Below are positions 22,382 through 47,419 of a stretch of DNA of 64,000 bases, piece after piece; within the stretch, counting starts at the first letter, position 1; every line of letters begins with the position of its first letter. A program made the translations under genes and the position numbers. Source of the DNA: Daphnia pulex (taxonomy: Eukaryota > Arthropoda > Branchiopoda > Diplostraca > Daphniidae); assembly GCF_021134715.1 (NCBI RefSeq), contig NC_060024.1:13008974-13072973 (forward strand), written 5' to 3'. The notes beneath the pieces are model-generated. The model made no database searches. It had not been told where the DNA came from and saw only the letters and a program-made list of their open reading frames with translations.

Positions 22382-22943
22382 TATATAGGGAGCGTTGTAT
22401 TGGTTAAACACATTCATCGTCGTCCAGCGCAGTAGGCAAGTGAGATTGTGATGGCAATTACAACATGTCTTGTAAGTTACTGAATTGAGTAAACGTGTTC
22501 TAAAATTTCAAACATCCAGGGAATATTTTAAATATTTTCATTCCCAAAAATTACATGATATGTAAGATTTGCAACCATCTGTTTTCTCAAGCCTTTATAG
22601 CTCAGTGGTAGAGCGTTGGTCTCGTATGTACGAATAGATAACCAAAGGCCGAGAGTTCAATCCTCTCTGAAGGCATTGTTAAATTTTGATAGATTTTTAT
22701 TGGGAAAAGTATTGGCTTTATGTTTCAATTAATTGCCCAAAGTCATACGTCATACATTCCCTTCCTTTTCTTTAAATGAAACGTACTATCTTTATTCGGA
22801 TAACTCATCCTATATTCCTTATCCTATTTAGTGCATCCTATTAGTGCAGCAGTCGCAAAATGGCCATTGATTTTCCGTATTCAATTAATTCCCGAGTTCC
22901 ACTTCCGTTGCAGGCCATTAGCGGGTTTTATCAACGGCATTGA
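22382..22943 (+). other. Orphan promoter and first exon, possibly a 39-aa peptide gene hosting a tRNA
   Basis: A TATA box (22382-22387) is followed at 22451 by an ATG and seven codons (MAITTCL) that end exactly at a good donor (gtaagt, 22472). This resembles the TATA plus very short first exon layout of genes H, I and M. The only in-frame continuation I find is 22845-22943, after ctattag, giving 32 more residues and a stop. If it is real, tRNA-Thr copy 1 sits inside the intron. It may equally be the stump of a gene whose body was lost. Confidence 0.25.
22591..22675 (+). tRNA. tRNA-Thr(CGT) copy 1, 13-nt intron
   Basis: The 72-base mature cloverleaf has acceptor GCCTTTA/TGAAGGC, an intact D arm, anticodon stem TTGGT/ACCAA, loop CTCGTAA with anticodon CGT, and T arm GAGAG/CTCTC. 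The 13-nt intron follows position 37 and contains ACGA, complementary to the loop bases TCGT. A box and B box are intact; a T run follows at about 22683. Confidence 0.93.
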
Positions 22944-23070
22944 AGAACTCGTAAACGGCGTCCCTCGTTCAAAGTGACCATCCAATTCACGAAAAGAATC
23001 TTACGCAAAATTATTCAAAACACCTTTGAATTTATGCACATTTGAATTGATGAATTTTCACGATGTTTGC

Positions 23071-23156
23071 GCCTTCTTAGCTCAGTGGTAGAGCGTTGGT
23101 CTCGTATGTTAATTGTAGTAAACCAAAGGTCGAGAGTTCAATCCTCTCAGGAGGCA
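23071..23156 (+). tRNA. tRNA-Thr(CGT) copy 2, 14-nt intron
   Basis: Same cloverleaf as copy 1 with acceptor GCCTTCT/AGGAGGC (one G-U pair) and stem TTGGT/ACCAA. The 14-nt intron (tgttaattgtagta) is unrelated to that of copy 1. Confidence 0.93.
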
Positions 23157-23529
23157 GATAATCACAAAATAATATTCCAAATTTCGTTCTCCATTTGATT
23201 GCTTTTGATGTACTCAATACAAACGCGCATTCGAGTTGTCGACTTTATCTGTTAGACAACGACACACTTTTGAAAGTGTTTTGTAAAAAAAATTGTATGA
23301 CCTCATCAGTAAACTCAACTGTTTGCCAATTAAGGCCAATTATAATGAAAGAAAAGATATCACGGAGATTATCGAAAAAAAACTTCTGTTGTTACTGAAA
23401 AGTCTAATAGAATTGGGTAAGAGACTCGACCGCAATTTCTCATTTTCATGCAGGAAACTCAACTGTACAGTAGACGAACTTGCGTGAGTGTCTAGTAGCA
23501 GTGCGGTATTTTTAAAGGTTTATTTCCAA

Positions 23530-23629
23530 TGCCTTCAGAGAGGATTGAACTCTCGACATCCGGTTTTCTTTTCTTTATCATCTTTTCTTTTCATACGAGA
23601 CCGACGCTCTACCACTGAGCTATAAAGGC
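23530..23629 (-). tRNA. tRNA-Thr(CGT) copy 3, 28-nt intron
   Basis: The anticodon stem is TCGGT/ACCGG and the intron is a 28-nt purine-rich run that differs at one base from that of copy 9. This gene is the outer end of the 1.75-kb inverted duplication shared with 33840-35587. Confidence 0.93.
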
Positions 23630-23721
23630 TGCTATGACAACAAATTCAATGATAAAAGTTTTAATGCATTTATGAACAAATCAAATAGTCCAGCTACTGC
23701 AGGAAGCCAGGAACCAAGGAA

Positions 23722-23913
23722 CTATATTTCCGCCTTGGCAGCCATCAAGGCATGGAAGAATTTCAGTTGAGCTGCCGGAATTGCGGACCTATTTTGTCTT
23801 GTTGAGGATGCGAGCAATGCGAAAATTTCATCTTCGACTGCTCCTTCAACTATCTCCTCGACTGGTTGAACTGCCTGCTGGGCAGCGGCAACTGGAAAAG
23901 CCCGGCTGCTCAA
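23722..23913 (-). pseudogene. 3' relic of a gene I paralogue (left arm)
   Basis: The minus strand encodes SRAFPVAAAQQAVQPVEE, then AIPAAQLKFFHALMAAKAE, matching the C-terminal half of gene I (SRAFPVAAARQAV, AIPAAQTTFFQTSMAAEAE). No signal peptide exon or start is attached, so it is a truncated copy. It lies about 100 bp from tRNA copy 3, as gene I does from copy 4. Confidence 0.65.
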
Positions 23914-24187
23914 AAAATGTCAATTCGGATAAACATTTGATTTTGTTGCTATCGGGCAGGTTCAAACCACACCCCATTAGAAACAGAGCGGTTTTGTGTG
24001 GGATAAAAAAAACATCGGATTTTTTGGTGGACCGAAAGCAAAATGGACCATTACCAGCCTTAATTCCAACTATGAAAAGTAACGTTATGAGACAGAGAAG
24101 CGCTATAATATCACGAGTAGTTTCATAATTTGTGTGTATTCTTTTTCTTGGATAAAGTAACTGTATTAACAAATCCTTCCCATACAA
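23846..24187 (-). other. Possible small secreted reading frame between H and the relic
   Basis: A 113-codon frame contains a hydrophobic stretch (IIALLCLITLLFIVGIKAG) followed by CFRSTKKSDVFFIPHKTA and FLMGCGLNLPDS. It looks like a signal peptide plus a small domain, but its 3' part runs into the gene I relic. In the right arm the equivalent frame is interrupted after the hydrophobic part. It may be a decayed small gene. Confidence 0.3.
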
Positions 24188-24345
24188 TATTATAGGATTG
24201 ACATGAAAAATCAGTTGTATAAGGGAAGCTTATGGATTAGTTAATTGCCGAAATTACCAAAATGTAGAAATTAAGTTTTCAATTGTCAAACGCCTAAAAG
24301 ATGTCTGATATAGCTGGGTCAGTAGTCGCCATTTCCAAAAGAAAG

Positions 24346-25000
24346 TTAAGCAAAAATGTCATCATCAAATTCAGAAAAATCGGCAAATGTAGCGTCAGTA
24401 TCTTGGAACTCGAAGTTGGCGAACTGATCAAAGTTGACATCGACAGCAGGAGCGGCAGGAATGACAACAGGAGCGGCGGCAGGAGCGGCAGGAGCAACGC
24501 TACTTTCCACGGCCTTTTCAGTTGGTTCCACGGCCTTTTTAGCGTCGACGGCAGCAGCGCCGGACTTGATCAAAGTCTTTTTCTCGTAGCAGAGGTCGCC
24601 GATAGTGCAAGGAAATTCCTCCTCCTGTTCGCCGAACAGTTCGGATAAAAGCGAAGCGATGTTAACATTGCTGTTTTTGTTGTCGTTGATGTTGACATTG
24701 GAGTTGCCGAGATTCTTCATCGGGCGATAGGTTGGACGATGGGTAGGACGGTGGGTTGGGCGGTGAGTTGGGCGGTGAGTTGGGCGGTAAGTTGGACGGT
24801 AAGTTGGACGTGTTGGGTAATAAGTTGGACGATGAGTCGTTGGTCGATGGGTCCCGTAACCGGAAACGTAGACCACGCAAACTAGCAAGATCAAAGCTGC
24901 TGATGCCTAAAAATTAATTACAATTGAATATTAATTCACAAAAAAAAATCAAAGTGAATAAGAAAATGAATTGGAAATGAATTTATACCGAGAACTTCAT
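24346..25000 (-). CDS. Gene H: secreted THRP-repeat protein, 190 aa
   Basis: Exon 1 (24989-25000) encodes only MKFS; exon 2 (24346-24906) supplies the rest in phase 0. The signal peptide (ASAALILLVCVVYVSG) is followed by about ten THRP/TYRP tetrapeptides, then GNSNVNINDNKNSNVN, a short segment with two cysteines (PCTIGDLCYEKK), an Ala/Pro-rich stretch and an acidic Phe/Asp tail. It is nearly identical to gene M in the opposite arm of the inverted duplication. The Thr/His/Arg/Pro repeats suggest an extended, possibly O-glycosylated, matrix or cuticle-type or antimicrobial secreted protein; none of these is shown. A TATA box lies at 25076-25083. Confidence 0.8.
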
Positions 25001-25075
25001 GTTGATTCGAGGAAAAGGACTGCTGATGCAAAGAACGAGAAGGGAAGTGTGATGAATTTGGAATGGTTCGTACCC

Positions 25076-25083
25076 TATTTATA
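25076..25083 (-). promoter_or_regulatory. TATA box of gene H
   Basis: On the minus strand the sequence reads TATAAATA, 76 bp upstream of the start codon. The paralogue M has TATAAAAA in the matching position. Confidence 0.65.
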
Positions 25084-25603
25084 CGAATTTGCTACCAATG
25101 TTCTTCCCTTAAGGACTTGGTTTAGAGAAAATAATTTTAATGAACGGAACCCAATGACGTTTAGACATCATTTAATCTGAACGAATTCACCGTGTATCTT
25201 ACCAATCTGGGTTAATTGCTGGCCAAATTGTATTCGGGAAACATTCCTCATTTGAACGTCGAGAAGAGAAAGCAATCCCGAATCACGATGACCCTGAATT
25301 ATTTTCAACTCTATTACATGAATCCTCGTAACTCGTTGGGTCGCTTTGGGCTAAATTATTCGTCACTAGCGCATTTATAATAATGAACGCGTATCAGACT
25401 GGAACTTGTGATTTGCAAAGTTGCACATTTTCTTCACAAAATGTCAGACTGTTAATATTAAACCGCTTATTATACGGATATAGCACGCTCGCGCAGAATC
25501 CTAAGAACTTTCCGGCTATTAGTTAATTAGCAAACTCTAAACAGAAAAATTTTCAAAGTCAATCACACACTAGCTGCAAGTCTCTTTTGGTTCCCAGCAT
25601 CAC

Positions 25604-25609
25604 TATATA
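25604..25609 (+). promoter_or_regulatory. TATA box of gene I
   Basis: The string tatata lies 91 bp upstream of the gene I start codon. Confidence 0.6.
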
Positions 25610-25699
25610 GGTCACGTCTATACCCATCTTTAAACATCATCGACTCCCATCTTCAGCAGTTGAAACATCTCCAGCTCTCTTTCTTTTTAGCGAATCAAT

Positions 25700-26165
25700 A
25701 TGAAGTCCTTTGTAAGTATCTAAAAATGAATTTATTCTCTTCTGTTTCCGCTCGTCAGGAAAATTGTCTTAAATTTAATTTGAAAATGTTTTTTAGGTTG
25801 CCCTTTCCGCCTTGGTCTTGGCCGTTTGCGTCGTGAGTAGCCAGGGCAAGTCTTTCGGCAACAAGAACGTCAACAAAAATGTCAACGACAATTCCAACGG
25901 TGATTTCGATTTCCTGTCCAGTTTTCTCGACTCCATGTTGAGCCAGGAAAGGAAAGGCAAGGCTGTGGCCAGCCGGGCCTTTCCAGTTGCCGCTGCCCGG
26001 CAGGCAGTTCAACAAGACGCGGAGATAGTTGAAACGGCAGCAGCCGATGACGTCAATGCTTCCGCCTCTGCGCCTCAACAGGACGAAATATCGGCAATTC
26101 CGGCAGCTCAGACGACATTCTTCCAAACTTCGATGGCTGCCGAGGCGGAAGAGTTCCTGCAGTAA
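25700..26165 (+). CDS. Gene I: small secreted protein, 126 aa, relative of H and M
   Basis: Exon 1 (25700-25711) encodes MKSF and exon 2 (25797-26165) the rest, the same four-codon first exon as genes H and M. The signal peptide is VALSALVLAVCVVSSQG. The mature part has an Asn-rich NKNVNKNVNDNSN motif, also seen in shorter form in H and M, then FDFLSSFLDSML and an Ala/Gln/Glu-rich tail ending EEFLQ. It has no cysteines after the signal peptide and no known domain. tRNA copy 4 begins 97 bp after the stop. Two truncated copies of its 3' half (23722-23913, 35213-35440) also lie beside tRNA-Thr genes. Confidence 0.75.
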
Positions 26166-26261
26166 AATCTATACGGAATGATTGACCTATTAATGAATTC
26201 AATAAACGCAATAACCCTTTTACCATAAAATTTGCATAGACTGTAATATTCACAATAATCC

Positions 26262-26346
26262 GCCTTTATAGCTCAGTGGCAGAGCGTCGGTCTCGTATGT
26301 GATATTAGTTAACCGGATGTCGAGAGTTCAATCCTCTCTGAAGGCA
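26262..26346 (+). tRNA. tRNA-Thr(CGT) copy 4, 13-nt intron
   Basis: Complete cloverleaf, anticodon stem TCGGT/ACCGG as in copies 3 and 9, but with a different 13-nt intron (tgtgatattagtt). It lies 97 bp downstream of gene I on the same strand. Confidence 0.93.
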
Positions 26347-26399
26347 AACGTTAATATCTGGCAGCAGTGCTTCACGATTATCACAAAAGTTCGTCTGCT

Positions 26400-26930
26400 G
26401 GATTGCAAAATTTTACTCAGTCGAACTTCCTAGCCTAGCGTTCTAAAAGTGTCTTGGGAACTTGAGGTAATTACTTCTTTTTTTATAAAAAGATAAAACA
26501 AAAACATTCAGCAATAAGAACTTTTGATCATATATTCTGTGCATTTGCAAAATAAGTCCGTTCACATGAAACACTTGGCTTTTTTTTTAGTTTTCCCCTG
26601 ACCCTCTGTGCTATTCTCGGTTTTACCGTTTCCCTACACGTGGTTGACACAGGTAGAACTAAAGAAAATATTGAAAATGACTTGGATGCCAGATCATGTC
26701 GGTACAAGAATTGAAAATCAATGGTTTGTTTTGCCTGCTTTGGATATCTATCCATGCTGGAAAATGGGCAATACAAGAATGTGTGTCTTTGACTCTTTGT
26801 CGGGTCCATGTTGCACCAAGAATTAACTTAAAGACAAGTCTAGACTTTTCAAGTGCATTGTTGCTGTTCCAACTTCTGTTTATGAACTTTTCCACAGTGA
26901 CGATAAGTTCTTGATTTTAAGTGAGCTCGA
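26400..26930 (+). pseudogene. Degenerate coding-like fragment shared with 35640-36130
   Basis: This stretch and 35640-36130 share blocks such as ccctacacgtggtt, LDARSC-encoding sequence and GQYKK/N-encoding sequence, each just downstream of a tRNA-Thr (copies 4 and 9). The frames are interrupted, so it looks like a piece of an old gene copied along with the tRNA. I cannot name the parent gene. Confidence 0.4.
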
Positions 26931-28446
26931 AGTGAGGGAAATTTTAATTGGTGTTTGAGATCATTTCACCTTAATGCTCACTTGCTAACTGGATAACATC
27001 AACAGCAAAATTCAGACATTCTTCCAAGTGTCGTGGCACGAACCACAAAGTTTTTGGGGTAAGATTTATTATGCAACTCTAAATGGTGTTTGTAATCAAA
27101 TTAACAGTTTCTGGATTCCTTGTCATAATCCATTATTTCTCTTCTCAATCTGTATTTCATTTTTTATGTCATATGTGTTTCCAGGGAAAATTTAAAGACA
27201 TTAACTATTCTGTTGTATTTATCATCTATAGGACAAACAGTCAAGACACGTATCCGCAAATGTAATTGCAAAAGGAACGGTCCATTTTAGCCCCTTGGAC
27301 AGCGACTCGTGTGTGTCCACCTCCGCATGAGCGACTCTCCCAGCGATACTGAACATTAATAGGTAGCTGCCCGGCCCCAGGATGAACCCTTAAACCAAAG
27401 TGAGTTGCATCAAAGATCAAACACATCAAGCGTTCTCTTTTGCATGTATCAATTCGTCCTGCCATTTGCTGATTTTTGTAACACACGTGGGACGGTGGGA
27501 GGAGTGAAATCGGTCAAACCAAAACCAATATTATATCGCTAAGGATCAACAACACGGAAAAGATTTTTGTTTCTCTTGAGAAATCACGTCGCTAGCTTAA
27601 AAAAAACTTAAAATCAAACTTGGCCGCATCTCTTCATACTTTGAACAAATGCGTTTCGAATTAAACCAATGATTAATGTTTTTCGGCTTGTACATGTGGA
27701 ATGCGAATTCACTCATCGCTTTCCGTATGGATCGAACATACCTCGCAGACCTGGTCCATACAAGCTTCATAATAGCTAACTAAGGTTCTTGATTTTTCAT
27801 TTTCCGAGAAAGAAATCGTTGGGAATAATTCGACAATCTCTGATCCCGATTTTCCAAGTCCGTTTTTGAAGGTCCTGGACGGAAGCACTGGACATCGTTT
27901 TGTACAGTGCCACCTACCGGTTTCCATTTATCCTTGCCCAGTTGCTTGGCCCAGTATGTTGACAAAAAATGTCTCGCATTTTTTATTATACTAAAAAATA
28001 ACAATTTGAAACTAAAGTAATTACGTTACCTATAACACGCTGCTGTTAATCTACACCTGAGTCGTTGTCAAGGGCAGAATCTTCGTCTCCCTCCTCGGCC
28101 ATCTCGAGAGCCCATTTCTCTTAAGATATCCTCTCCTCCCGTTGGGAGCTTCTGCCGCCACAAGGCTTTCCAATGTCCATCAGGGCATGGGTGCTGATCA
28201 CGATCTTGGGCGTTTTGATAGCCAAAACAATTGGGATAAAAGCGAAGCGTTAAGTGAATCGCCGTTATTGTTGGTTGTGGGTAAAAAATCTTCCGATAAG
28301 AGTTTGAATACGAGCTACTCCTCACAACGATAATATGTTGGATAGAACGATAGAACATTTCTATTTATTAAGAATTCTATTTACATGTAAAATTTCTGAT
28401 GTGACGATTCTCCTCTGTATCGGCGGGTATTTATTATCTATTCTAT
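26931..28446. other. Spacer with no clear gene
   Basis: Several minus-strand frames between 27241 and 28358 are open for 70-95 codons, but they have no recognisable product, splice partner or promoter. I do not annotate them. Confidence 0.4.
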
Positions 28447-28543
28447 TGCCTTCTGAGAGGATTGAACTCTCGACCTTCGGTTTTCTTCGGTTTATATCTT
28501 TATTACTTACGAGACCGACGCTCTACCACTGAGCTAAGAAGGC
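28447..28543 (-). tRNA. tRNA-Thr(CGT) copy 5, 25-nt intron
   Basis: Complete cloverleaf with stem TCGGT/ACCGA. The 25-nt intron ends with AACCGAAGAA, a near copy of the following AACCGAAGG of the tRNA body. The intron therefore probably grew by duplicating the 3' anticodon stem. Confidence 0.92.
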
Positions 28544-28884
28544 TGTGATGCTGAAGGAATAGGAAAAACAAAATGCCATTTAAAAATGATTAAACCCTGG
28601 ATGAAATTCTATTTAAATCCGTCGGTTCGAAACAGTTGTTTTTCGTTAAAAAAAAGATAAATCACTCAAAACCGAACAGATGGCAACTGACGTTGTCAAA
28701 AAGTGTTGCACCACATCGTTCGAAATGTTGTATGGAAATACTCCCTGTGTACAATGGTGACGGAGCAAGAATTGTGTACGCACCGAATTCGTTTCAGTCC
28801 TTGACGGACCGCAGTGATTACTGATTACTGAACATTGTGCAACGTTTCAGTGTGTTCCCATTTATCTAGTATAGACTTTGGATG

Positions 28885-28890
28885 TATATA
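28885..28890 (+). promoter_or_regulatory. TATA box of gene J
   Basis: The string tatata lies 105 bp upstream of the gene J start codon. Confidence 0.5.
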
Positions 28891-28989
28891 ACGGGCATAT
28901 GATAAAAGCTCATTTTAGAAAATGTATACCGTCGACGACAGCCTGCACCTGACACATTCACCTGCTGTTCTCATTAACGCCAAGACAAA

Positions 28990-30748
28990 ATGAAATATCT
29001 CCTGGCCGCCCTACATATCGTAATTTTCCTCACTAACACTCAAATCAATCTTAAACTAGAAATAAGCTTGGACGATTAAACCCTTCAATATTCTGTGTAT
29101 TTGCGCTCATGTTCTGTTAAACCATTTTCTCTGCAGGTCCTAATAGTGACAGTGGCTGCCGAAAATGTGGCCCGCATGTCGATGGCTCGTGGTCAAAACG
29201 CGGAAAGAATTGAAAATCGTCCAACCGGTGATGTTAGTGTCGTCGACGCCTGCCAAGAGGATTATTCCCCGTGCACCTGCTACACATATCCTTCGGAGGC
29301 AATCCCTTCTCTCTATGTGCAATGTACCAACGTTCCGTCCTTCGAATCCGTCCAGTCCGTCTTCCTGCGCACCACGGCCCGGCAGGTGAAGGAATTCGTT
29401 TTGACCATCCCGTCATTCGAAACAAACAAAACCATTCCTGCCGATTTGCTCAGTGGCAAAGGTGCCCAAGAGATCACGCTGAATTGCCCTGACTCGGAGA
29501 CGCAGTTGACGGTCGATCCTGCAGCATTCAACTCATCGAAAGACTACACCAATTTCATTAAATTCAGCACATGCGATCTGAGCCAACTGAACTACGCATT
29601 CCTAGCAAATTTCAATGTCTTGAGGGAGGTTTCATATTTTAGTTCGATTAACGTCGCTCAGTGGTCCGGCCTCCCCTTTCTTCCCAGCCTTCAGAAGCTA
29701 TCAATGAGCAGCTCTCCTGACTTTAAAGACTTTGGAAACGTGCCCTTCTCCAAGTTACCAGCTCTGAGCGAGTACTCCATTTTATCGTGTCCGAATTTCG
29801 AATTGTTGCCCAACACGACAGCAATGAAGTTGTTGAGAATAGAGTCGTGTCCGCTTTTCAAACAGTGGGACATTTTGGCCCAGCAGAGCAAGATGACCTC
29901 TCTCACCCTCCTTGGCCTGGATAGTCAGACTATCAAAGATGCCTTGGATTCCGTCATCTCCTCTCCTTCGGTTGGCACTTTGACAGATTTAATTTTGTCA
30001 GAAAATGGACTGAACGAGGTCCCTGCACGAATTCAACTGTTCTCCCAACTGCGAACCTTTTCTCTGTCCAGGAATATCATTTCCTCCGTTGGAAATGGTT
30101 CGCTATCTTTCAGTACACTTAACCTTCAATATTTGGATCTATCAAGAAATGGTCTCGATACCATCGAACCAAACGCCTTTCAAGGTTTGTTTTCTACTTT
30201 TTTCATTCCTTTCTTCTTATTTTAATTTTCTGTATGGTTGTGTCTAGGTAATTTTGGCAAGACTGTGATCACCCTGTCGTATAATCAGTTGAGCAGACTT
30301 GAGTCGTCCATCTTCAAGCCGATACTGGAACAGATGGAGTCCACCGACCAATACGGTTACGTCGACATATACGAAAGTACTACATTAGCTACTCCTACAT
30401 CTTATTTGAATTCATAAATATAATTTCCTTTTATTCTTGTGTGAAATTCAAGATCCCATCGAATGCGATTGCCACCTGGACTGGTTATTCGTTGATAACA
30501 GTAATTTAGTAGATCGAGTTCACGATGGGCAATGCTCCAACGGCACGTCCTTTTCATGGCTTAAACCACAAGATTTCTCCTCTTGCAAATTCGGTTCAAC
30601 CATTTCCACCACTACCAACAATCCACTGACGCCGCCATCTATTGGAGGAGCATCAAGTTCTCTTCAACTTTTCAGCCCCATTCATTTTGTTATACTGCTA
30701 TTCACGTTCTTGTTTTTGCAGAAAACATCTTTAGTTTATGTCTGGTAA
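28990..30748 (+). CDS. Gene J: LRR surface protein, 500 aa
   Basis: Four exons (28990-29019, 29137-30184, 30248-30376, 30453-30748). The ten-codon first exon joins exon 2 to make a signal peptide (MKYLLAALHI + VLIVTVAA). A Cys-rich cap (DACQEDYSPCTCYTYP) is followed by leucine-rich repeats (LTDLILSENGL, LQYLDLSRNGL), a C-terminal cap (PIECDCHLDWLF), a Thr/Pro stalk and a hydrophobic tail (FVILLFTFLFL), which suggests a GPI anchor. Crustacean proteins of this kind are often named after the non-catalytic subunit of Oplophorus luciferase; that name says nothing about function. Gene K is its closest paralogue. tRNA copy 6 lies 70 bp downstream in convergent orientation. Confidence 0.85.
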
Positions 30749-30818: not shown

Positions 30819-30903
30819 TGCCTCCTGAGAGGATTGAACTCTCGGCCTTTGGTTATCTAATCGTACGTACGAGACCAACGCTCTACCACTCAGCTAAGAA
30901 GGC
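30819..30903 (-). tRNA. tRNA-Thr(CGT) copy 6, 13-nt intron
   Basis: Cloverleaf as in copy 2 (acceptor GCCTTCT/AGGAGGC). The D stem reads GCTG opposite GAGC, so its last pair is mismatched, unlike the GCTC of all other copies. The intron contains ACGA, complementary to the loop TCGT. It is convergent with gene J. Confidence 0.88.
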
Positions 30904-33075: not shown

Positions 33076-33161
33076 GCCTTCTTAGCTCAGTGGTAGAGCG
33101 TTGGTCTCGTACTGATGGATAAGACAACCAAAGGCCGGGAGTTCAATCCTCTCAGAAGGCA
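33076..33161 (+). tRNA. tRNA-Thr(CGT) copy 7, 14-nt intron
   Basis: Complete cloverleaf, stem TTGGT/ACCAA, 14-nt intron ctgatggataagac. The T stem has one G-U pair (GGGAG/CTCTC). Confidence 0.92.
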
Positions 33162-33238: not shown

Positions 33239-33323
33239 GCCTTCATAGCTCAGTGGTAGAGCGTTGGTCTCGTATAATAAAATGGATAACCAAAGGCCGA
33301 GAGTTCAATCCTCTCTGAAGGCA
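33239..33323 (+). tRNA. tRNA-Thr(CGT) copy 8, 13-nt intron
   Basis: Complete cloverleaf 77 bp after copy 7 on the same strand, with acceptor GCCTTCA/TGAAGGC and intron taataaaatggat. The two neighbours do not share intron sequence. Confidence 0.93.
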
Positions 33324-33839: not shown

Positions 33840-34032
33840 GAGGGTCATCGTGATTCGGGATTGCTTTCTATTTTCGCCGTTTAAATGAGGAATATTACGC
33901 CAACACAATTTGGCCAGCAATTAACCCAGATTGGCGCGGTACAAGGCGAATTCGTTCAGATTATATGGTGTACACATAATTGGATTCCGTTCATTAAAAG
34001 TCCTTAATGGAAGACCATTGACAGCAAATTTG

Positions 34033-34040
34033 TATAAAAA
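34033..34040 (+). promoter_or_regulatory. TATA box of gene M
   Basis: The string tataaaaa lies 89 bp upstream of the gene M start codon, matching the gene H promoter. Confidence 0.65.
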
Positions 34041-34121
34041 GGGTAAAAATCATTTCAAATTCATCACACTTCTCTTCTCTTTCTTGTTCTTAGCATCAAC
34101 AGTCCTTTTTCTCGAAACAAC

Positions 34122-34776
34122 ATGAAGTTCTCGGTATGAATTAATTTCCAATTCATTTTCTTATTCACTTTCATTTTTAATTGTGAATTAATATTCAATT
34201 GCAATCAATTTTTAGGCATCAGCAGCTTTGGTCTTGCTAGTTTGCGTGGTCTACGTTTCCGGTTACGGGACCCATCGACCAACCACTCATCGTCCAACTC
34301 ATTACCCAACACGTCCAACTTACCGTCCAACTTACCGCCCCACTCACCGCCCTACCCATCGCCCCACTTACCGCCCCACCCATCGCCCCACCTATCGCCC
34401 AATAAAGAATCTCGGCAACTCCAATGTCAACATCAACGACAACAAAAACAGCAATGTTAACATCGCTTCGCTTTTATCCGAACTGTTCGGCGACCAGGAG
34501 GAGGAATTTCCTTGCACTATCGGCGACCTCTGTTACGAGAAAAAGAATTTGATCAAGTCCGGCGCTGCTGCCGTCGACGCTAAAAAGGCCGAGGAACCAA
34601 CTGAAAAGGCCGTGGAAAGTAGCGCTGCCCCAGCCGCTCCTGCCGCCGCTCCTGTTGTCATTCCTGCCGCTCCTGCTGCCGATGTCAACTTTGATCAGTT
34701 CGCCAACTTCGAGTTCCAAGATACTGACGCTACATTTGCCGATTTTTCTGAATTTGATGATGACATTTTTGCTTAA
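34122..34776 (+). CDS. Gene M: secreted THRP-repeat protein, 190 aa
   Basis: Exon 1 (34122-34133, MKFS) and exon 2 (34216-34776) give a protein of the same length as gene H. The number of tetrapeptides is unchanged; differences are scattered substitutions (for example HYP for YYP early in the repeat and KNL for KTL after the paired cysteines). The layout is signal peptide, THRP/TYRP repeats, Asn-rich linker, PCTIGDLCYEKK, Ala/Pro-rich stretch, acidic tail. Both copies have intact frames, splice sites and TATA boxes, so both are probably expressed. The duplication is young relative to the rest of the cluster. Confidence 0.8.
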
Positions 34777-35212
34777 CTTTCCTTTTGGATGTGGTGACCC
34801 ACAACCAGTTGTATTAGACATCCCTTCCGGCGTTTGACAACTGAAAACTTAATTTTCTACATTTTGGTAATTTCGGCAATTAACTAATCCATAAGCTTCC
34901 CTTATACAACTGATTTTTCATGTCAATCCTATAATATTTTATGGGAAGGATTTGTTAATACAGTTACTTTATCCAAGAAAAAGAATACACACAAATTATG
35001 AAACTACTCGTGATATTATAGCGCTTCTCTGTCTCATAACGTTACTTTTCATACTTGGAATTAAGGCTGATAATGGTTTTATTTTGCTTTCGGTCCACCA
35101 AAAAATCCGATGTTTTTTTTATCCCACACAAAACCGCTCTGTTTCTAATGGGGTGTGGTTCGAACCTGCCCGATAGCAACAAAATCCAAATGTTTATCCG
35201 AATTGACATTTT

Positions 35213-35440
35213 TTGAGCAGCCTGGCTTTTCCAGTTGCCGCTGCCCAGCAGGCAGTTCAACCAGTCGCGGAGATAGTTGAAGGAGCAGTCGAAGATGAAA
35301 TTTTCGCATTGCTCGCATCCTCAACAAGACAAAATAGGTCCGCAATTCCGGCAGCTCAACTGAAATTCTTCCATGCCTTCATGGCTGCCAAGGCGGAATA
35401 TAGTTCCTTGGTTCCTGCTGTAGCTGGACTATTTGATTTA
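35213..35440 (+). pseudogene. 3' relic of a gene I paralogue (right arm)
   Basis: Encodes AFPVAAAQQAVQPVAEIVEG and AIPAAQLKFFHAFMAAKAE, matching the C-terminal half of gene I, without a signal exon. It lies 48 bp upstream of tRNA copy 9 and mirrors 23722-23913. Confidence 0.65.
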
Positions 35441-35487
35441 TTCATAAATGCATTAAAACTTTTATCGTTGAATTTGTTGTCAAAGCA

Positions 35488-35587
35488 GCCTTTATAGCTC
35501 AGTGGTAGAGCGTCGGTCTCGTATGAAAAGAAAAGATGATAATGAAAAGAAAACCGGATGTCGAGAGTTCAATCCTCTCTGAAGGCA
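35488..35587 (+). tRNA. tRNA-Thr(CGT) copy 9, 28-nt intron
   Basis: Complete cloverleaf, stem TCGGT/ACCGG. The 28-nt purine-rich intron matches that of copy 3 except at one base, which confirms the two arose by the inverted duplication. Confidence 0.93.
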
Positions 35588-35639
35588 AGCTATATAAATT
35601 GGCAACACTGTTTACCTGTCCTTTTATAAGTCGTCTGCT

Positions 35640-36130: not shown

Positions 36131-36134
36131 TTCC

Positions 36135-36950
36135 CAGTTTTATAATTATTCAAATTTGCATCCTAAAGGAGTGCTGAAGCAGTTGCACGGTTCCTTTATA
36201 GTCATCGCCTGGCTTATGGCCGCCTCCGTAGGAATGTTAATGCCGCGCTACATGAAAAAGACTTGGGTCGGCAAGCAGTTTAGGATCTCTGGTTTGTGGT
36301 AAGTTTCTCTTACGGGAAATAATCGTTCAACAAATTCTTAATTGATGTTATTTCATCTGTTAATGGTAGTACCACCGAGGATTGATGGTGCTGGCCTGGA
36401 CTCTGACGGTGATCGGCTTCATCATCATTTTCGTCGACGTCGATGGCGTGGTGTCCGTTTCCGAGAATTCCCATCCGCTTATCGGATGTATCACCACTGG
36501 TAAGTGGCTATATCTCTGAACTCATGAAATGTACTCATGAAACTTACTGGATCTTGACGGACAAAATTTGCTGCTACGTGGGCGCACATCTCCTTTTGAC
36601 TGTAACGTTACAAAGATGATTTTCGATAATTTGGATCAACTTCCATAGTTTTTGGCACGAAGAAACGCAGCCGTCCGAGATGTATTTAAGGGTGATGCCC
36701 CGAGAGATGAAACGGTACTTTTATTTAATAGAAAAAATCAGCTTAATTTGAATTGCACCATAAAACTTGAGCTGTCTCTGAATCGGATTGTAAAGGGATC
36801 TCTTGGAAGGGAAATCATCGTCGTCTGTTACACCTGCATTTTTGTTGAGCTAGGTTTTACCGTCATTGCCTTCATCGCTCATTGTAATGACTTTTCCGAT
36901 TATTTTAGGAAGATAGAACTTTCGATATTTTTAAATTTGCATTGAGACTT
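36135..36950 (+). pseudogene. Broken 3' half of a Reeler-DOMON-b561 gene
   Basis: Exons equivalent to 10, 11, 13, 14 and 15 of gene N are recognisable with their flanking splice sites (for example LKQLHGSFIVIAWLMAAS from 36169 and FLARRNAAVRDV near 36650), so this is a DNA-level copy, not a retrocopy. It is not functional: the Reeler and DOMON half is absent, exon 12 and the start of exon 13 are deleted, and about seven bases are missing in exon 10. The exon 10 sequence is closest to gene O, while exons 14-15 are closest to gene N. Confidence 0.85.
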
Positions 36951-36956
36951 TTAATT

Positions 36957-36980
36957 AACGCTCTGCCACTGTGTAAAGAA
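36957..36980 (-). pseudogene. tRNA-Thr remnant
   Basis: The minus strand preserves a degraded D arm (ACAGTGGCAGAGCGTT against CTCAGTGGTAGAGCGTT). The flanking sequence (tccaagaatg..ttcgccattagtttc) also flanks the remnant at 45421-45498, so the two were copied together. Confidence 0.55.
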
Positions 36981-37207: not shown

Positions 37208-37293
37208 TGCCTTCAGAGAGGATTGAACTCTCGGCCTTTGGTTATCTACTGTGTATTTACGAGACCAACGCTCTACCACTGAGCTATAAAGGC
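37208..37293 (-). tRNA. tRNA-Thr(CGT) copy 10, 14-nt intron
   Basis: Complete cloverleaf, acceptor GCCTTTA/TGAAGGC, stem TTGGT/ACCAA, 14-nt intron AATACACAGTAGAT. It lies downstream of the broken FRRS1-type fragment, in opposite orientation, as copy 11 does after gene N. Confidence 0.93.
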
Positions 37294-40592: not shown

Positions 40593-42547
40593 CTGTAAAA
40601 GAATAAGTTTTAGTACGCCGAACGATATTGGCTTTTTAATATCACGTATCGATACTGGAAATAATTCGGATCGAGTTCGAATGTTAGATTTTCACCTGGA
40701 GCTAAATAGGCTACTGACTTTATACTGTTCTTGTAGTTCGGATTTTATAGGGAGTTAGGAGAGTTGCCGTGTCCTTTACACTTGCGTGCAGAGCTTCGCG
40801 CCCCTTGGAATAATGAAATCCTATACTTATTCGGTCCACTGCATATTTAGACTAGTTGAAATTTCGATTAAGCCTCAGTCTCCGTGAAATTCGTCGAGTC
40901 ATAAATAATTGAAATGCAAATCAAATATATTTCAATTGAGGAGCCGAAGAAACCTAGATCCAATTTAAAAGAGCCTATACAAACAGTTCGGCGCTCTTCA
41001 CAAGAAGTATAAGCACAAAGCCACAAAGTTGTTGGAATAGGTCATCTAATTACGCAGGGCCGAATGGCCGAAACTAATTCCATTCGACCAAATGATTGAA
41101 CAGCATCTCCTATCTGATGCATTTCCTATTATTATTAGAATTGTACGATATTGATGGAGTCTACGTTACCCCATACCAAGCCACTGGAAGAAAAAATTGT
41201 AATTATAAATCGATTTAGATCACTTGATTCCTCTCCTTGTGCTCGTTTCTTCTTCTCTTTGCCAAAGGCAGATTTTGAAAATTGGCTGTTGAAATCGTTA
41301 ATTATTTTTTTCTCTCTTTGAAGTTCCGTGTAATGTGAATGCATACTTTGGTCGGAATGCTATTGCCCTATCAAACTTTGTTTATGATAACATGTAGTGA
41401 CTAACTGTTGATATTGTAAGAACGATGAGAAAAAAGTCCAACCGTCCATCAATGTATCACGTATTTCAAGACTTTTTTTTGGCACGTAGTCCATTACTAT
41501 ATCAATAAGACGAACATATTAGTTTTGAAACAGGACAAGGTTTCTATTTACTTACTCGGATTGAAGGCCATAGTATGATAATCGATGTGGTGAAATTATG
41601 GCTCTAGTAAATCAATAGAAAAAGAAAATAAATAGATAAAATAAATTAAACGTGAAATTGCGACTTGTGATTAATGGAAAATCAAAATGTTCTAATGAAA
41701 TTGAATAATTGAACCTTTCGAATTTTCAATATCAAGGCTGTGTCAGCAGAGTAGCGGAGAATAGACTTTAAAAGCGAGGTAGGAAGTTTACGCAGGCAAT
41801 GTATCCGATAAGAGTCAATTTCCGAACCATATGTCCTATGTTTGAAAGCAAAATAACTAAACAAACACACGCATCTTATTTTTAGGACACAGTTTTGCGT
41901 TGTGAACCGTGACTTGTATAATAGCTATCGATATCGGTTTTCTATCGAGTCATGTAAAATATCTTTTTTTTTTTTCAATTCTCATTAGTCACGTTCACAT
42001 TTGATTTTACGATGAGCCGATGACGACAAAATATTCCAGGCGTCTAGATAAGCAATACAATTCGGTTTATCTTTAATTAATTATATTTTAATTATAATAT
42101 TTTTTATAGTTCATTTTTTATTCATTTGTATTAGTGAAAGTGACTTGCAAATGTGCACGCGTTAGTCGATATTCCTTTAATGACAGCAATGAACAATCAC
42201 AATTTTTCGAGATAAGACGGATTAGTTTATCTCATCGTTAAACGTTAACAGGATATGTCTAAACTATTTTATGTGCCACAGTCATAAGGTGAAGGAGTAT
42301 TATTTCATAGTCCTTCAACGATGACGTATTTTCACAGGCATGAGTTTGGCTCGTGCGTCATATTTACTGGTGTATTATCAGTTAAGTGAGAGCGTGTGAG
42401 TGGTCGGCTAAAGAGATAGTGTTAATCAAATTTGATTTTGTGCCGTATCGCTGAGATTTAAAGAGTGAAAACCCCAAATGCCAGCAGCCAGTACTGTAGA
42501 TCAGTGTGGATTTGTCGGAGGTTCCAATAGTTTTTTAGTCGTCCGTT
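40593..42547. other. Divergent spacer between genes U and N
   Basis: AT-rich, no supported gene. It must hold the promoters of both flanking genes, but no clear TATA box was found. Confidence 0.4.
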
Positions 42548-45337
42548 ATGTCTTGGCACGGTTTTTTGTTAGCCGTAATGTTCTGCTTATCCCAGAGCGG
42601 GGTGGCAGCGTCTCCTGATGGAGCGCCGACCTCGGCGTGTAATTCCATGAAACCAGGACATGGCAGACAGTCGAACGCTGCGTGTCCATTTCAAACTATT
42701 TTCGATAAGGTAATAGTCGCATTTTACTGTTCCTAATTTCAGTATTGATTTAGCAGCCTAAAAACACATTATTTTTGTTTTCCGTCGCTCCGTCCAGACG
42801 GAAATGTTTTCCAATGGTACCTTGAAAGTGACGTTACAAAGACCTCCAACATCGATAAGCGATACATTCAAAGGTATAAATTTAGACATTGAAATCATTT
42901 CCATTGAATTGAAGTTATCAGAATATGTTTCTAATGCAGGTTTTTTGGTCATGGCGTTCAACAAAGCAACGAATGCTGTTATTGGAACATTTTTTATTCC
43001 GTCGGCAGACCAGAACAGCAAAACTCTAAATTGTGGTCAATATGATGTAAATCTATAGACTATGAGGCTAAACAGCGGTAAATATGATTTGTGCGCAATT
43101 TTAATGCAATTTATTTAAAATACAGAATGCTGCAACGCACAAAATTAACAGTGCAAAGTCAAGTATTTCGATGGATTGGATTCCTCCTCAAGGATTCGAC
43201 GGTGATGTCGAATTCAAGTAATTAAATTAACCTTAAGCGTACAGAAGGTTCAACTTGTTTTCTCAACTTTAATTGTGGGGTTTTCATTTCGACAGAACTA
43301 CTTTTATATTGGACAAAAATATTGATTATTGGGTCAAAGAATCTTCCGGGACGATCCGTATTATTGCCTCCGAGCCTATACCTACAAACCCAACCACCGA
43401 CTCGGCAAACACTCAAGTACGTATTATATCTCCATCGTAAAAATCATTACTACTACCATACGAAACAGTTAAATATGATGAATTTGTGATGCCATTCACT
43501 TACAGCCTCCGCTCCCAGATCTTTATGTCGGATGCGGGGAAACTAAAGGCTGTATTGCCACACCTGATGAATGCATCGCCACAAAAAGCTGCTCCATGTT
43601 GACAACATACAGAAAATTCGACAACGATCATTTGGAGCTGGAGATCTATGGTGAAATCACAGGGGATCAATATGTGGCTGTTGGATTTTCCACTGATTCA
43701 AAAATGGTAAATATTGACTCGAATGTGTTCTAATTTGACTTGATTACAGCATCTGAGGTGCTTTCTTTTCAGGGATCCGACAGTGTGGTTCAATGCGTCC
43801 AATACCGCAGTGCGCCGAAAACGTATCAGTCATACAATACTCAGGACCACGACAACAAAAGGCTTACATCGAACGTAAGGAATTATTTCGCAATCCTATT
43901 TTTTACTTATGATATTTGTTGCTGACTGCATTCTGACAATTTTCAGTTGCAAGGGTTTCAAGAAACTTCCTCCTCATTTGTTGACGGATACATTTATTGC
44001 AGCGTAATACATCCTGTTGTATTCAAAAATTCCAACCAAGACTTTGATCTGAATCAACCGCATTATATTCTGATGGCCACGGGGACCGCTGGACAAGGTA
44101 TAAATAATAAACAGTCAGCAGTAAAGTAGCTTCCAATAGGAGATGAATTTTATCGATTGATTTCCTCAACTTTTAGATAAAATTGAACGTCACTCTAAAG
44201 ACGAAAAGAGCAGTGCATCCATTAATTTAACAAGTGATACCGGCATCTCGTATTACAAAGAATCAAGTAATTATATTTTCAAATTTTTCCTCCATTTTCA
44301 CAGTTTCCTTATAATTCTCTTTGAATCCTAAAGGAGTACTGAAACAGTTACATGGTTCCTTCATGGTTATCGCCTGGCTTATGGCCGCATCCACTGGGTT
44401 ACTGATGCCGCGCTACATGAAAAAGACGTGGGTCGGCAAGCAGTTCATGAAAAAGGACCTCTGGTTTGTGGTAAGTTTCTTTACGCGGGAATGAATCGGT
44501 CAACCAATTCTTAATTGATGTTATTTCATCTGTAAATGGCAGTATCACCGAGGATTGATGGTGCTGGCCTGGACTCTGACGGTGATCGGCTTCATCATCA
44601 TTTTCGTTGACGTTGATGGCTGGGTGTCCGAGTCCGTCTCCGAGAATCCCCATCCGCTTATCGGATGCATCACCACTGGTAAGTGGCCATCTCTGAACTC
44701 CTTTTGACAACAATTATTGAATAATTTTGGTCTTGAAACAGTTTTGGCCTTCATCCAACCTTTCATGGCCTTAATGAGACCCATGCCCAACGCTCCGAAT
44801 CGATACATTTTCAATTGGGCCCATATGCTCGTCGGATACTCTGCTCACATCTTAGCTAGTAACTAAATTTCTTGGCGAAACCGATTTACTTTGTGCTAAT
44901 ACCCCTTTTTGCAATATTTAGTTACCTGTATATTTTTGGCCGTCGAAATGGAAGAGGCGGAATTACCTTATGAAACTTACTGGATCTTGACGGCCCACAT
45001 TTGCTGCTACGTCGGCGCACATCTTCTTCTGACCGTATGAACAATATTTAGTGTTTTGAAATATTTTAAGCTGACACTTTTTTACCATTTGCATTCAATT
45101 TCCATAGTTTTTGGCACGAAGAAACACCACCGTGCGTGATGTACTGAAGGATGCTCCGAGAGATGAAACGGTATTTCTTTTCAACTGCAATTATCAGCTT
45201 AACTTTATTACTAACTTGGGCTGTTTGTGACTGTAATTTTGAAGGGATCTCTTGGAAGGAAAATCATCGTCATCTGTTACATCTGCATTGTAGTTGGACT
45301 GGGCTCAACTGTCATTGCCTTTATCGCTGGAGCGTAG
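42548..45337 (+). CDS. Gene N: Reeler-DOMON-cytochrome b561 protein (ferric-chelate reductase 1-like), 586 aa
   Basis: Fifteen exons: 42548-42709, 42798-42873, 42940-43046, 43126-43217, 43296-43416, 43506-43706, 43773-43874, 43947-44097, 44177-44266, 44334-44470, 44543-44678, 44742-44858, 44922-45034, 45108-45170 and 45245-45337. After the signal peptide come a Reeler domain (about 24-165), a heme-binding-type DOMON domain (about 187-338, GCIATPDECIATKSC, LEIYGEITGDQYVAVGFS) and five to six membrane helices of b561 type. Candidate heme histidines lie in LHGSFM, NPHPLIG, NWAHMLVGYSAH and TAHICCYVGAH. Animal relatives (FRRS1/SDR2) move electrons across membranes and reduce ferric iron. A degraded tRNA-Thr and then tRNA copy 11 follow it. 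Confidence 0.9.
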
Positions 45338-45420
45338 TAACATTTCCGATTCAATTTTTTTCATGTAGGATATAGTTTGTGATTTACTTAACCTTGGCTA
45401 AAATATGTACGAATTTATTG

Positions 45421-45498
45421 ACTACTGAGAGGATCGAACTCTTGGTACTTTTTTTTTATTTTCAATTTCGCTCTTCGGTCTCTACCATTATGTGAATT
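45421..45498 (-). pseudogene. tRNA-Thr remnant
   Basis: The minus strand keeps a mutated T arm (gaggatcgaactctt region on the plus strand), while the D arm and the stem in between are degraded. The sequence beyond it matches the tract beyond 36957-36980. Confidence 0.6.
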
Positions 45499-45949
45499 AT
45501 CCAAGAATGATTTCGCCATTAGTTTCTAAATGTTGCAATGCCGATCATAACAAAGAGTCGTTCAATTTGGTAGATATTTGTGTTTCCAATCGTTATTTCT
45601 TTGAAATAATACATTCATTTATCAATTCTTCCGTGAATTTATTGTGAATTGATCGAATTGCGCTTCGATCCTAGAGCATGCAGAGGCAGAAGAGTTAAAT
45701 CAGTTGAATCCTTAAACCTACAGATATTGTTTGTTTACAATTTGAAGTCATTGATAGTGATACGAGAATAATCTAACCTTCTACTCAACGAAAGAGAACA
45801 AAGTCCCAGCATATTGTGTTTTACTTATCGTTTTTATTTTTGTCACCGTTAATCAAATACAACAGTAAATGTGTAAAATTAGCCAATCATGCACTATTAA
45901 TAAATAGATATCTAAACATTAATAATTCTTTTAAATTAATTACTTTGAT

Positions 45950-46064
45950 TGCCTTCTGAGAGGATTGAACTCTCGACCTTCGGTTATCTTCTATGTGTTA
46001 TCACTTTGGCAATGATTAATGCGTAATGTACGAGACCGACGCTCTACCACTGAGCTAAGAAGGC
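45950..46064 (-). tRNA. tRNA-Thr(CGT) copy 11, 43-nt intron
   Basis: Complete cloverleaf with stem TCGGT/ACCGA. The 43-nt intron is the longest of the set and is unrelated to the others. Acceptor and T arm are intact. Confidence 0.9.
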
Positions 46065-46726
46065 TTGATACTTATCTTGAGTGATCGTGAGCGCACCAGT
46101 ATACCTGACCACAGTATGTTGAGTTCAAGAAGCATCAGCCAAGATCCTCCATTCCAAAGTTGACGACATTGAATTCGTTTGGACTTTGCATCCAGCACCG
46201 TCTCCCATTATTTCTCAGCTACTTGCAGAGTCTTGTCGCAATGCTCTCTACCTCTCGAGACATAGCAGCAAAGATAAGTATGCAAATGCAACTTGAATTT
46301 GGCGTGAACCACTCGCCAAAAGTCCCACAAACCTAGTTGATCTTTACAATAACTTCCTTATGAAACTCAGTTCGTTAATGTTTATCGGAAAAAATAACAG
46401 TTAAACGTTGTAAAGGTTTATACAAAATTGTTTTCAAATTTTTTAAAATAGAATTCGAAACCCTCACCAGAAAGGGGTTTGGAGGAAGAGGTATATTTTG
46501 TTTCCGAGAAAAAAAAAAACAGGTGGCCATGATGAAACCAAATAAGGTCACCCGATTGGCGGCATTTTCCTTCGTTTCTTTTGGGTTTTGTTTTTTGTTT
46601 TTCTTACCCTTTCCTGGAATCGTGTTCAGTGTTGAACTGCATGGCGTCGTTACGAGTCGCAAGTAATACTATCTCCCGGAATTGTCGTAATTTTAAACCT
46701 GTGTTAAAGCGCAACTATAGGATCAG

Positions 46727-47164
46727 ATGAATTGCCATTTGTGTTATTTGACGCTGATTTTTTTCGTGTTGTGTTTGGTTCATCGAAGCGAAGCTGCGAG
46801 TGGAGATGGAGCTCGTACGAAACTCAACAGTCAGACGGCGTTGGCTTTGGAGTAAGTTGAAATTTTGATTACTTGTTTTTTAAATGAAATGTAAAAGTTA
46901 TTGTATGGTATGTTCAGATCGAGAGATAAGCGCTGGGTTGTTCAAGAAGTATTTCACTCGACTGTCAATTTTATCAAATGGAATTTTGTCAGTCGCATAT
47001 CTGTTTCGTTAATTAACGAGCTCATGAAGGTGATCGATCCTGTCGTCTATCTTCTGCTACCTCGTGGAGCATCCACAATCGCCTCTGTAATCCTTTCTTT
47101 CGTCTACAAAAAGTTACAATTCTTTATCATGTACTGGTTCAACAACCTCTTCTTCAATCTCTGA
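46727..47164 (+). CDS. Gene V: small secreted hydrophobic protein, 123 aa
   Basis: Two exons (46727-46851, 46918-47164) join in phase 2. The signal peptide (CYLTLIFFVLCLVHRSEA) precedes a short polar part, then an amphipathic, Val/Phe/Leu-rich region (WVVQEVFHSTVNFIKWNFV, VIDPVVYLLLPRGAS, FFIMYWFNNLFFNL). No mature cysteines and no domain I recognise. Its size, two-exon form and helical C-terminus recall gene G and the end of gene F, but I see no convincing alignment. tRNA copy 12 starts 170 bp after the stop. Confidence 0.6.
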
Positions 47165-47333
47165 CGAAATTTCTTAAATTTAGATTTCTCGTAATTTATA
47201 GCCTCACTATTTTAAAATTGCTTGATTATCGACAGCTATTATGACTTAAAATAAATGACGAGGCTTATTTTTATTTTAACATTATTGCGCTAACTTTGTT
47301 TTAAATTTTGGTCGTATTTTACTTTGTGACATC

Positions 47334-47419
47334 GCCTTCTTAGCTCAGTGGTAGAGCGTTGGTCTCGTACGATTGTTGAGGACAACCAAAGGCCGAGAGT
47401 TCAATCCTCTCAGGAGGCA
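47334..47419 (+). tRNA. tRNA-Thr(CGT) copy 12, 14-nt intron
   Basis: Complete cloverleaf with acceptor GCCTTCT/AGGAGGC, as in copies 2 and 6. The intron is cgattgttgaggac. It is convergent with gene K, 51 bp beyond its stop, just as copy 6 is with gene J. Confidence 0.93.

What the first reader, a model, noticed from the sequence alone, without database searches (positions are those of the whole stretch)
22591..47419. Twelve intron-bearing tRNA-Thr(CGT) genes in 25 kb with constant bodies and hypervariable introns
All twelve fold into the same 72-nt cloverleaf with loop CTCGTAA, and all carry an intron after position 37. Intron length is 13, 14, 28, 13, 25, 13, 14, 13, 28, 14, 43 and 14 nt in order. 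Apart from the duplicated pair (copies 3 and 9) the introns are mostly unrelated. Seven copies are on plus and five on minus, with no other tRNA type among them. Introns in tRNA-Thr(CGT) are not among the common animal cases I know (Tyr, Leu-CAA, Ile-UAU). The pattern suggests selection on the body and the splice structure, with free turnover inside the intron.
Basis: partly seen in the sequence, partly recalled or inferred. Interest (0 to 1): 0.8.

Follow-up and report, generated by a model that had tools for sequence, protein, structure and literature searches.

The report
Intron-bearing threonine tRNA gene cluster
This stretch of what is very probably the water flea Daphnia pulex genome holds twelve ordinary-looking threonine tRNA genes, each interrupted by a small, fast-changing intron that keeps the one base the tRNA-splicing enzyme is known to need; it is an unusual tRNA type for animal introns rather than a new mechanism.

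Summary
Corrections: bodies are near-constant (9 distinct of 12); introns 1 and 6 are a second related pair; two weak relics were missed. The genome is very probably Daphnia pulex. I found 45 Thr-CGT genes of this body, a lower bound; 43 carry introns, on six chromosomes. All 47 introns of the wider family have G at -3, placed to pair with C32: the 'proximal base pair' reported for all 16 Drosophila intron tRNAs. Base -4 is a purine in 46 of 47. Eight Tyr genes examined here (of 49 places) obey the same rule. Predicted folding does not by itself favour the pair. In homologous duplicates introns diverge like downstream flank, bodies two to three times less and without indels. TSEN and RtcB genes are present. 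So: a standard tRNA-splicing family in an unusual isotype, grown by segmental duplication and decay. Transcription and splicing are untested.

The parts
22591..22675 (+). tRNA-Thr(CGT) copy 1; intron 22627-22639 (13 nt)
   Evidence: Rfam 62.8 bits; parse
23071..23156 (+). tRNA-Thr(CGT) copy 2; intron 23107-23120 (14 nt)
   Evidence: Rfam 61.2 bits; parse
23530..23629 (-). tRNA-Thr(CGT) copy 3; intron 23566-23593 (28 nt)
   Evidence: Rfam 57.2 bits; parse
26262..26346 (+). tRNA-Thr(CGT) copy 4; intron 26298-26310 (13 nt)
   Evidence: Rfam 56 bits; parse
28447..28543 (-). tRNA-Thr(CGT) copy 5; intron 28483-28507 (25 nt)
   Evidence: Rfam 62.3 bits; parse
30819..30903 (-). tRNA-Thr(CGT) copy 6; intron 30855-30867 (13 nt); one D-stem G-G mispair (body positions 13 and 21)
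   Evidence: Rfam 56.3 bits; parse; mispair
33076..33161 (+). tRNA-Thr(CGT) copy 7; intron 33112-33125 (14 nt)
   Evidence: Rfam 61.3 bits; parse
33239..33323 (+). tRNA-Thr(CGT) copy 8; intron 33275-33287 (13 nt)
   Evidence: Rfam 64.3 bits; parse
35488..35587 (+). tRNA-Thr(CGT) copy 9; intron 35524-35551 (28 nt)
   Evidence: Rfam 57.2 bits; parse
37208..37293 (-). tRNA-Thr(CGT) copy 10; intron 37244-37257 (14 nt)
   Evidence: Rfam 62.7 bits; parse
45950..46064 (-). tRNA-Thr(CGT) copy 11; intron 45986-46028 (43 nt)
   Evidence: Rfam 60.7 bits; parse
47334..47419 (+). tRNA-Thr(CGT) copy 12; intron 47370-47383 (14 nt)
   Evidence: Rfam 61.2 bits; parse
36900..36980 (-). probable decayed relic of a Thr gene (D-arm region still readable)
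   Evidence: model R1 13.2 bits, E 0.35 over the window; 15-nt local match; weak alone, supported by its place in a direct duplication
45419..45501 (-). probable decayed relic of a Thr gene (T-arm and 3' acceptor still readable), at the corresponding place of the duplicate
   Evidence: model R1 11.9 bits, E 0.74 over the window; 27-nt local match; weak alone
23519..25295 (+). arm of an inverted segmental duplication carrying copy 3 (partner 33841-35598 carries copy 9); pieces 86-98% identical
   Evidence: inverted repeats I1, I3-I7, I10
33841..35598 (-). partner arm of the inverted duplication, carrying copy 9
   Evidence: inverted repeats I1, I3-I7, I10
29095..30225 (+). leucine-rich-repeat ORF between copies 5 and 6; paralogue at 47977-49020 beside copy 12
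   Evidence: Pfam LRR_8 1.6e-9; 70% protein identity
47977..49020 (-). leucine-rich-repeat ORF beside copy 12
   Evidence: Pfam LRR_8 5.6e-9

Best explanation
These are mostly functional nuclear tRNA-Thr(CGU) genes of Daphnia pulex. They would be transcribed by RNA polymerase III as intron-bearing precursors, cut by the TSEN endonuclease at 37/38 and at the intron 3' end, and joined by the RtcB ligase. TSEN measures from the tRNA body and needs one pair, C32 with intron base -3 (the anticodon-intron or proximal base pair), which leaves a 3-nt bulge at the 3' cut. Most of the rest of the intron is nearly free, so it drifts in sequence and length at about the rate of flanking DNA, while selection, possibly with gene conversion, holds the exons. 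The family grew by local segmental duplication together with neighbouring protein genes, and by spread to other chromosomes; some copies are decaying (birth-and-death). Shown: gene identity, intron position, invariance of G(-3), relative divergence, duplicated segments, presence of TSEN and RtcB genes. Inferred: transcription, splicing, charging with threonine, and the species name.
For: Twelve Rfam matches and compensatory stem changes in 11 cells. With exons fixed by the cloverleaf register (36 + 36 nt), the 47 intron-bearing family members have G at -3 in 47, C32 in 47, A38 in 47, and a purine at -4 in 46 (A in 37); the next most uniform positions of those tabulated are -2 (A in 26) and -1 (A in 25). 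Grouping introns by similarity gives 34 groups; one representative of each has G(-3) in 34 of 34. This equals the rule for Drosophila in PMC6614914 (passages): C-G proximal pair in all 16 intron tRNAs, 3-nt bulge at the 3' cut, 6 nt from the pair to the exon end. Eight Tyr genes of the same genome, all that I fetched of 49 pattern places, obey it. Flanks are unrelated across copies (mean pair identity 0.28-0.31, body 0.916). In 17 homologous-slot pairs divergence is body 6% with no indels, intron 20% with 18% gaps, upstream 11% and downstream 21%. A TSEN catalytic domain and RtcB are encoded.
Against: No RNA evidence was available. With the cloverleaf enforced, ViennaRNA gives the C32-G(-3) pair only 0.09 probability on average, above 0.5 in 1 of 47; that exceeds fully shuffled introns (0.027) but is below introns shuffled with their last four bases kept (0.219), so the pair rests on invariance and precedent, not on predicted stability. 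C32 is invariant and C34 nearly so, so covariation cannot say which C the G pairs with; several predicted folds use C34. The downstream T-run test does not discriminate: TTTT within 40 nt in 26 of 52, background 29%, but the upstream 40 nt show it in 29 of 52. Nine of 52 members have mispaired stems and two have shifted anticodons (TAT, CAT). The 17 slot pairs are not independent, 16 of them are from C7, and body divergence is only about half that of the upstream flank. The introns share ancestry, so 47 or 34 are not independent events.
Confidence: 0.88

Rival explanations
1. The copies are tRNA-derived dispersed repeats (SINE-like) or mostly silent pseudogenes.
For: Many copies (52 family members found), several decayed: 9 of 52 with stem mispairs, two probable relics in the window, two anticodon-shifted copies. 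Downstream T-runs are no more frequent than upstream ones.
Against: No shared 3' body or tail: pair identity of flanks across copies is 0.28-0.31, close to what base composition alone would give (my estimate), against 0.916 for bodies. No clear excess of flanking repeats: shared words of 8 or more in 5 of 52 (10%), control 6%. CCA directly 3' in 0 of 52. Stems show compensatory changes. 36 of 43 intron-bearing CGT copies have no mispair. 36 of the 43 lie on C7 and C8, many in clusters.
Confidence: 0.07
2. The introns carry a function of their own (for example circular tricRNAs with specific targets, or an intron-dependent modification of C34 or A37), and the expansion served that.
For: All 43 intron-bearing CGT copies keep the splice rule; animal tRNA introns can become circular RNAs (PMC6614914 passages); G at -5, which would extend pairing to C34, occurs in 1 of 34 intron groups where 6-7 are expected (post hoc, p about 0.006-0.01 before any correction for the positions looked at).
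Against: Intron interiors fall into 34 groups without mutual similarity at z above 4 and diverge about like downstream flank; one gene with the commonest body has no intron at all (L048), so the intron is not tied to that body.
Confidence: 0.05

Closest known systems
Intron-bearing nuclear tRNA genes of animals (Tyr-GTA, Leu-CAA, Ile-TAT)
   Same: Intron at 37/38; C32 and G(-3) placed as the proximal pair, 3-nt bulge at the 3' cut, 6 nt from the pair to the exon end (rule from PMC6614914 passages); TSEN and RtcB genes in the genome.
   Different: Isotype is Thr-CGU, which I did not see listed as intron-bearing in any animal in the passages read; at least 43 intron-bearing CGT copies.
Intron-bearing tRNA-Tyr genes of the same genome
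   Same: 8 of 8 fetched genes (of 49 pattern places) carry introns of 11-38 nt with the same C32/G(-3)/A38 geometry.
   Different: 36 of the 49 Tyr places lie in one tandem array on C10, of which I read one gene; the Thr-CGU genes of the window are irregularly spaced on both strands.
Other Thr tRNA genes of the same genome (Thr-AGT/Thr-TGT type of the C5 array; intronless Thr-TGT on C4 and C11)
   Same: Same amino acid; the three C4/C11 Thr-TGT bodies differ from the intron-bearing Thr-CGT of C11 at 5, 8 and 9 of 72 positions.
   Different: No intron in the anticodon loop: three of three C4/C11 genes, and the 100 listed of 206 places of the other type match straight through the anticodon stem-loop.

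Membership tests
nuclear tRNA-Thr(CGU) gene | cloverleaf fitting the tRNA covariance model above the curated score | tested here: met
   12 of 12 in the window above 29 bits
nuclear tRNA-Thr(CGU) gene | anticodon CGU after intron removal, with threonine identity bases G1-C72, C2-G71, G35, U36 (identity set recalled) | tested here: met
   all 12 sequences
nuclear tRNA-Thr(CGU) gene | transcribed, processed and charged with threonine | not testable with these tools
   no RNA data
animal TSEN-spliced tRNA intron | intron at 37/38 | tested here: met
   12 of 12 in the window; in 47 of 47 of the family the cloverleaf register (36 + 36 nt exons, set by the parse) leaves C32, A37 and A38 in place
animal TSEN-spliced tRNA intron | C-G proximal pair (C32 with intron -3), 3-nt bulge, 6 nt from pair to 5' exon end (PMC6614914) | tested here: met
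   bases and spacing met in 47 of 47; that the pair forms is not shown: predicted pairing probability is low
animal TSEN-spliced tRNA intron | TSEN endonuclease and RtcB ligase encoded | tested here: met
   PF01974 at C1 (1.6e-22) and a partial match at C11 (31 bits); PF01139 in six matches on C3. Structural TSEN subunits not searched
animal TSEN-spliced tRNA intron | intron actually excised | not testable with these tools
   no RNA data
tRNA-derived SINE | shared tRNA-unrelated body or tail downstream | tested here: not met
   downstream pair identity 0.306 (1-50) and 0.281 (51-100)
tRNA-derived SINE | target-site duplications | tested here: not met
   shared flank word of 8 or more in 5 of 52, control 6%; mean longest word 5.9 against 5.6

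The most novel reading that the evidence does not exclude
One threonine isoacceptor, and not its AGU/UGU sisters, carries introns in this lineage. If the intron was gained or kept and then carried through more than 40 duplications, the family is a natural mutagenesis library for animal tRNA splicing: some 34 diverged intron sequences that keep only G(-3) and a purine at -4 and seem to avoid G at -5, which would over-extend the anticodon-intron helix.
Probability: 0.45. Interest if true: 0.5.

Novelty: new member of a known kind. Interest (0 to 1): 0.4.

Why it matters
It adds an isotype that I did not see named as intron-bearing in animals in the papers searched, and gives a large within-genome set of diverged introns. 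From that set the sequence requirement of animal tRNA splicing can be read directly: one G, a purine beside it, and spacing from the body. It also offers slot-matched duplicates for measuring how fast tRNA introns, exons and flanks evolve, and one intronless gene with the commonest body for testing whether the intron does anything.

Tried and rejected
SINE/dispersed-repeat origin: rejected on flanks, target-site words and CCA. Retrocopy of a spliced tRNA for the intronless gene L048: no CCA, and a longest shared flank word of 8 nt, which 6% of controls reach, so left open. Downstream T-runs as evidence of Pol III termination: not discriminating. Thermodynamic support for the anticodon-intron pair: weak. 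Sequences outside this genome: no exact match of the exon-1 core in viral contigs or genome contigs; I had no other crustacean genome to search, so age and spread of the intron are unknown. Literature: nine paper searches (one search was only for the assembly). Several gave capped lists (for example 15 of 109, 20 of 45, 10 of 1,138). No listed title or abstract start reported introns in animal Thr-CGU genes or in Daphnia nuclear tRNAs. Papers seen as passages only: PMC11705514, PMC8450103, PMC5427498, PMC12926508, PMC6614914, PMC2888827, PMC9858662, PMC3706591, PMC11408192; PMC4090602 as passages and one section; all others as search listings. GtRNAdb was not available.
Full report
Source. The window lies at G000:C8:13008974-13072973 of a 133,188,837-base genome in 13 contigs. 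C13 is 15,333 bases long. D. pulex is given as 133.2 Mb, with assembly KAP4 under GCF_021134715.1, in passages of PMC12926508, and a passage of PMC5427498 gives 12 chromosomes for D. pulex; 15,333 as the D. pulex mitochondrial length is recalled. So the organism is very probably Daphnia pulex.

Observation. Rfam finds exactly 12 tRNA genes in the window, all within 22591-47419. The 12 bodies are 9 distinct sequences varying at 12 of 72 positions. The cloverleaf with the C32/G(-3) pair is 99.6% paired over 264 cells; 11 cells carry double changes against 5.0 in shuffles, from only two pairs, a number of pairs that shuffles reach too (2 against 1.8). Among 66 intron pairs, 3/9 and 1/6 are clearly related and 4/9 marginally.

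Genome-wide. An exact exon-1 pattern has 38 places; a looser one with up to two mismatches has 64. Sixty of those 64 lie in stretches I fetched or in the window; the other four (one on C2, three on C7) read as other isotypes from their anticodon loops. The covariance model R1, built from the 12 window genes, gave 73 matches at E up to 0.1 over 38 sources. Sixty were parsed, leaving out 12 in L001-L007 (other tRNAs fetched by the first search) and one 22-bit match in L051. Eight more rows (L060, L061, L062, L064, L068 and three of L066), other tRNAs or poor fits, were dropped, leaving 52 family members on 8 chromosomes. Of these 45 have anticodon CGT and 43 of the 45 carry an intron, on six chromosomes. 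The intronless CGT genes are L048:2817-2888 (C8, body identical to the commonest one) and L057:2703-2774 (C2). Four other intron-bearing members have TGT (two), TAT and CAT; three TGT members have no intron. A DNA search with the intronless body found 57 matches (40 of 45 first-look candidates scored), all in loci already known. These are lower bounds. The other Thr body of the genome (stem-loop GCGCCTGCCTNGTAAGCAGG) has no exact CGT match: the list, ordered by mismatches, begins at one mismatch; of 206 places 100 were listed and all listed ones read A or T at the wobble base, so an unlisted CGT copy with another mismatch is not excluded.

The splice rule. In 47 of 47 introns base -3 is G, with C32 and A38 invariant; -4 is A or G in 46 of 47 (A in 37); the other tabulated intron positions are mixed. 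The parse fixes the exons at 36 + 36 nt from the model's ends, so these counts rest on the cloverleaf register. Grouping introns by similarity (z above 4, last three bases held in the shuffles) gives 34 groups, and one representative of each has G(-3) in 34 of 34; with intron G content 0.196 this would be about 1e-24 for independent draws, which the introns are not, since they share ancestry. PMC6614914 (passages) reports the C-G proximal pair in all 16 Drosophila intron tRNAs, a constant 3-nt bulge at the 3' cut and a constant 6 nt from the pair to the end of the 5' exon; the Daphnia Thr introns meet all three in base and spacing. Eight of eight Tyr genes fetched in this genome, of 49 pattern places, do too. 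Against: constrained folding does not strongly predict the pair (mean 0.09, 1 of 47 above 0.5; shuffled 0.027; shuffled with the last four bases kept 0.219).

Evolution. Across copies flanks are unrelated (0.28-0.31 pair identity) while bodies are at 0.916 (47 intron-bearing members). Copies 3 and 9 lie in an inverted duplication of about 1.8 kb, whose relatives recur about 0.4 Mb away with two more Thr genes (L051). Many C7 genes lie in repeated blocks (L039-L043, output cut in the middle). In 17 homologous-slot pairs (15 from C7 slots A-C, one from C7 slot D, one from the window, slot F) divergence was body 6.0% with 0 gaps, intron 19.5% with 18% gaps, 60 nt upstream 11.2% with 10% gaps, 60 nt downstream 21.1% with 21% gaps. 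Four other slot pairs (F2, G, H, I) were printed but not summed. Random pairs aligned the same way reach about 0.73 identity over aligned columns, so these divergences are underestimates and the comparison is rough. Decay is visible: 9 of 52 members have stem mispairs, and two probable relics sit at matching places of a direct duplication in the window, though a third match at 15447-15524, outside the cluster, scores higher than either. Leucine-rich-repeat and PT-repeat open frames are duplicated with the tRNA genes (the PT match is below Pfam's cut-off).

Machinery. A TSEN catalytic domain is encoded at C1 (80 bits; 1.6e-22), and a partial match lies at C11; RtcB is encoded at C3:1649685-1651461.

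Judgement. This is a real, largely intact tRNA-Thr(CGU) family whose introns follow the known animal rule. The mechanism is known; the isotype and the scale are unusual. Function rests on inference until RNA is sequenced.

Corrected: which intron positions are next most uniform, the share of slot pairs from C7 (16 of 17), the statement on body against flank divergence, the shuffle measures that do not exceed chance, the third weak match, and that only one gene of the Tyr array was read.

Noticed in passing
G000:C5:5472165-5540678: Large tandem array of Thr-AGT and Thr-TGT genes (about 484-base spacing), mixed along the array; 206-211 pattern places genome-wide on this motif, 100 listed per call.
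   Followed up: partly
G000:C10:9820622-9881006: Tandem array of tRNA-Tyr genes at about 1,423-base spacing (36 of 49 Tyr places), with another tRNA at the same spacing in the region. The one array gene read (L076) carries an intron.
   Followed up: partly
L066 (G000:C1:1142500-1144500): Bacterial-looking tRNA cluster Leu-TAG, Thr-TGT, Pro-TGG, Tyr-GTA; the first three are followed by an encoded CCA. A neighbouring 114-aa open frame has no Pfam or phage match. Possible transfer or contamination.
   Followed up: partly
L041:3411-3523 and L042:1971-2094: Intron-bearing Thr-type bodies whose anticodons read TAT and CAT, with one and four stem mispairs.
   Followed up: no
window 3333-4844 (-) and 5586-7421 (+): Two divergently oriented paralogous open frames, 35% identical, with no Pfam match.
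   Followed up: no
family introns, position -5: G at -5 (would pair with C34) in 1 of 34 intron groups, 6-7 expected; post hoc, p about 0.006-0.01 uncorrected.
   Followed up: partly
C7 versus C8 members: Introns on C7 are longer (median 36 nt) than on C8 (median 14 nt).
   Followed up: no
window 15447-15524 (+): Weak match to the Thr model (14.3 bits, E 0.18), outside the cluster; possible relic or chance.
   Followed up: no
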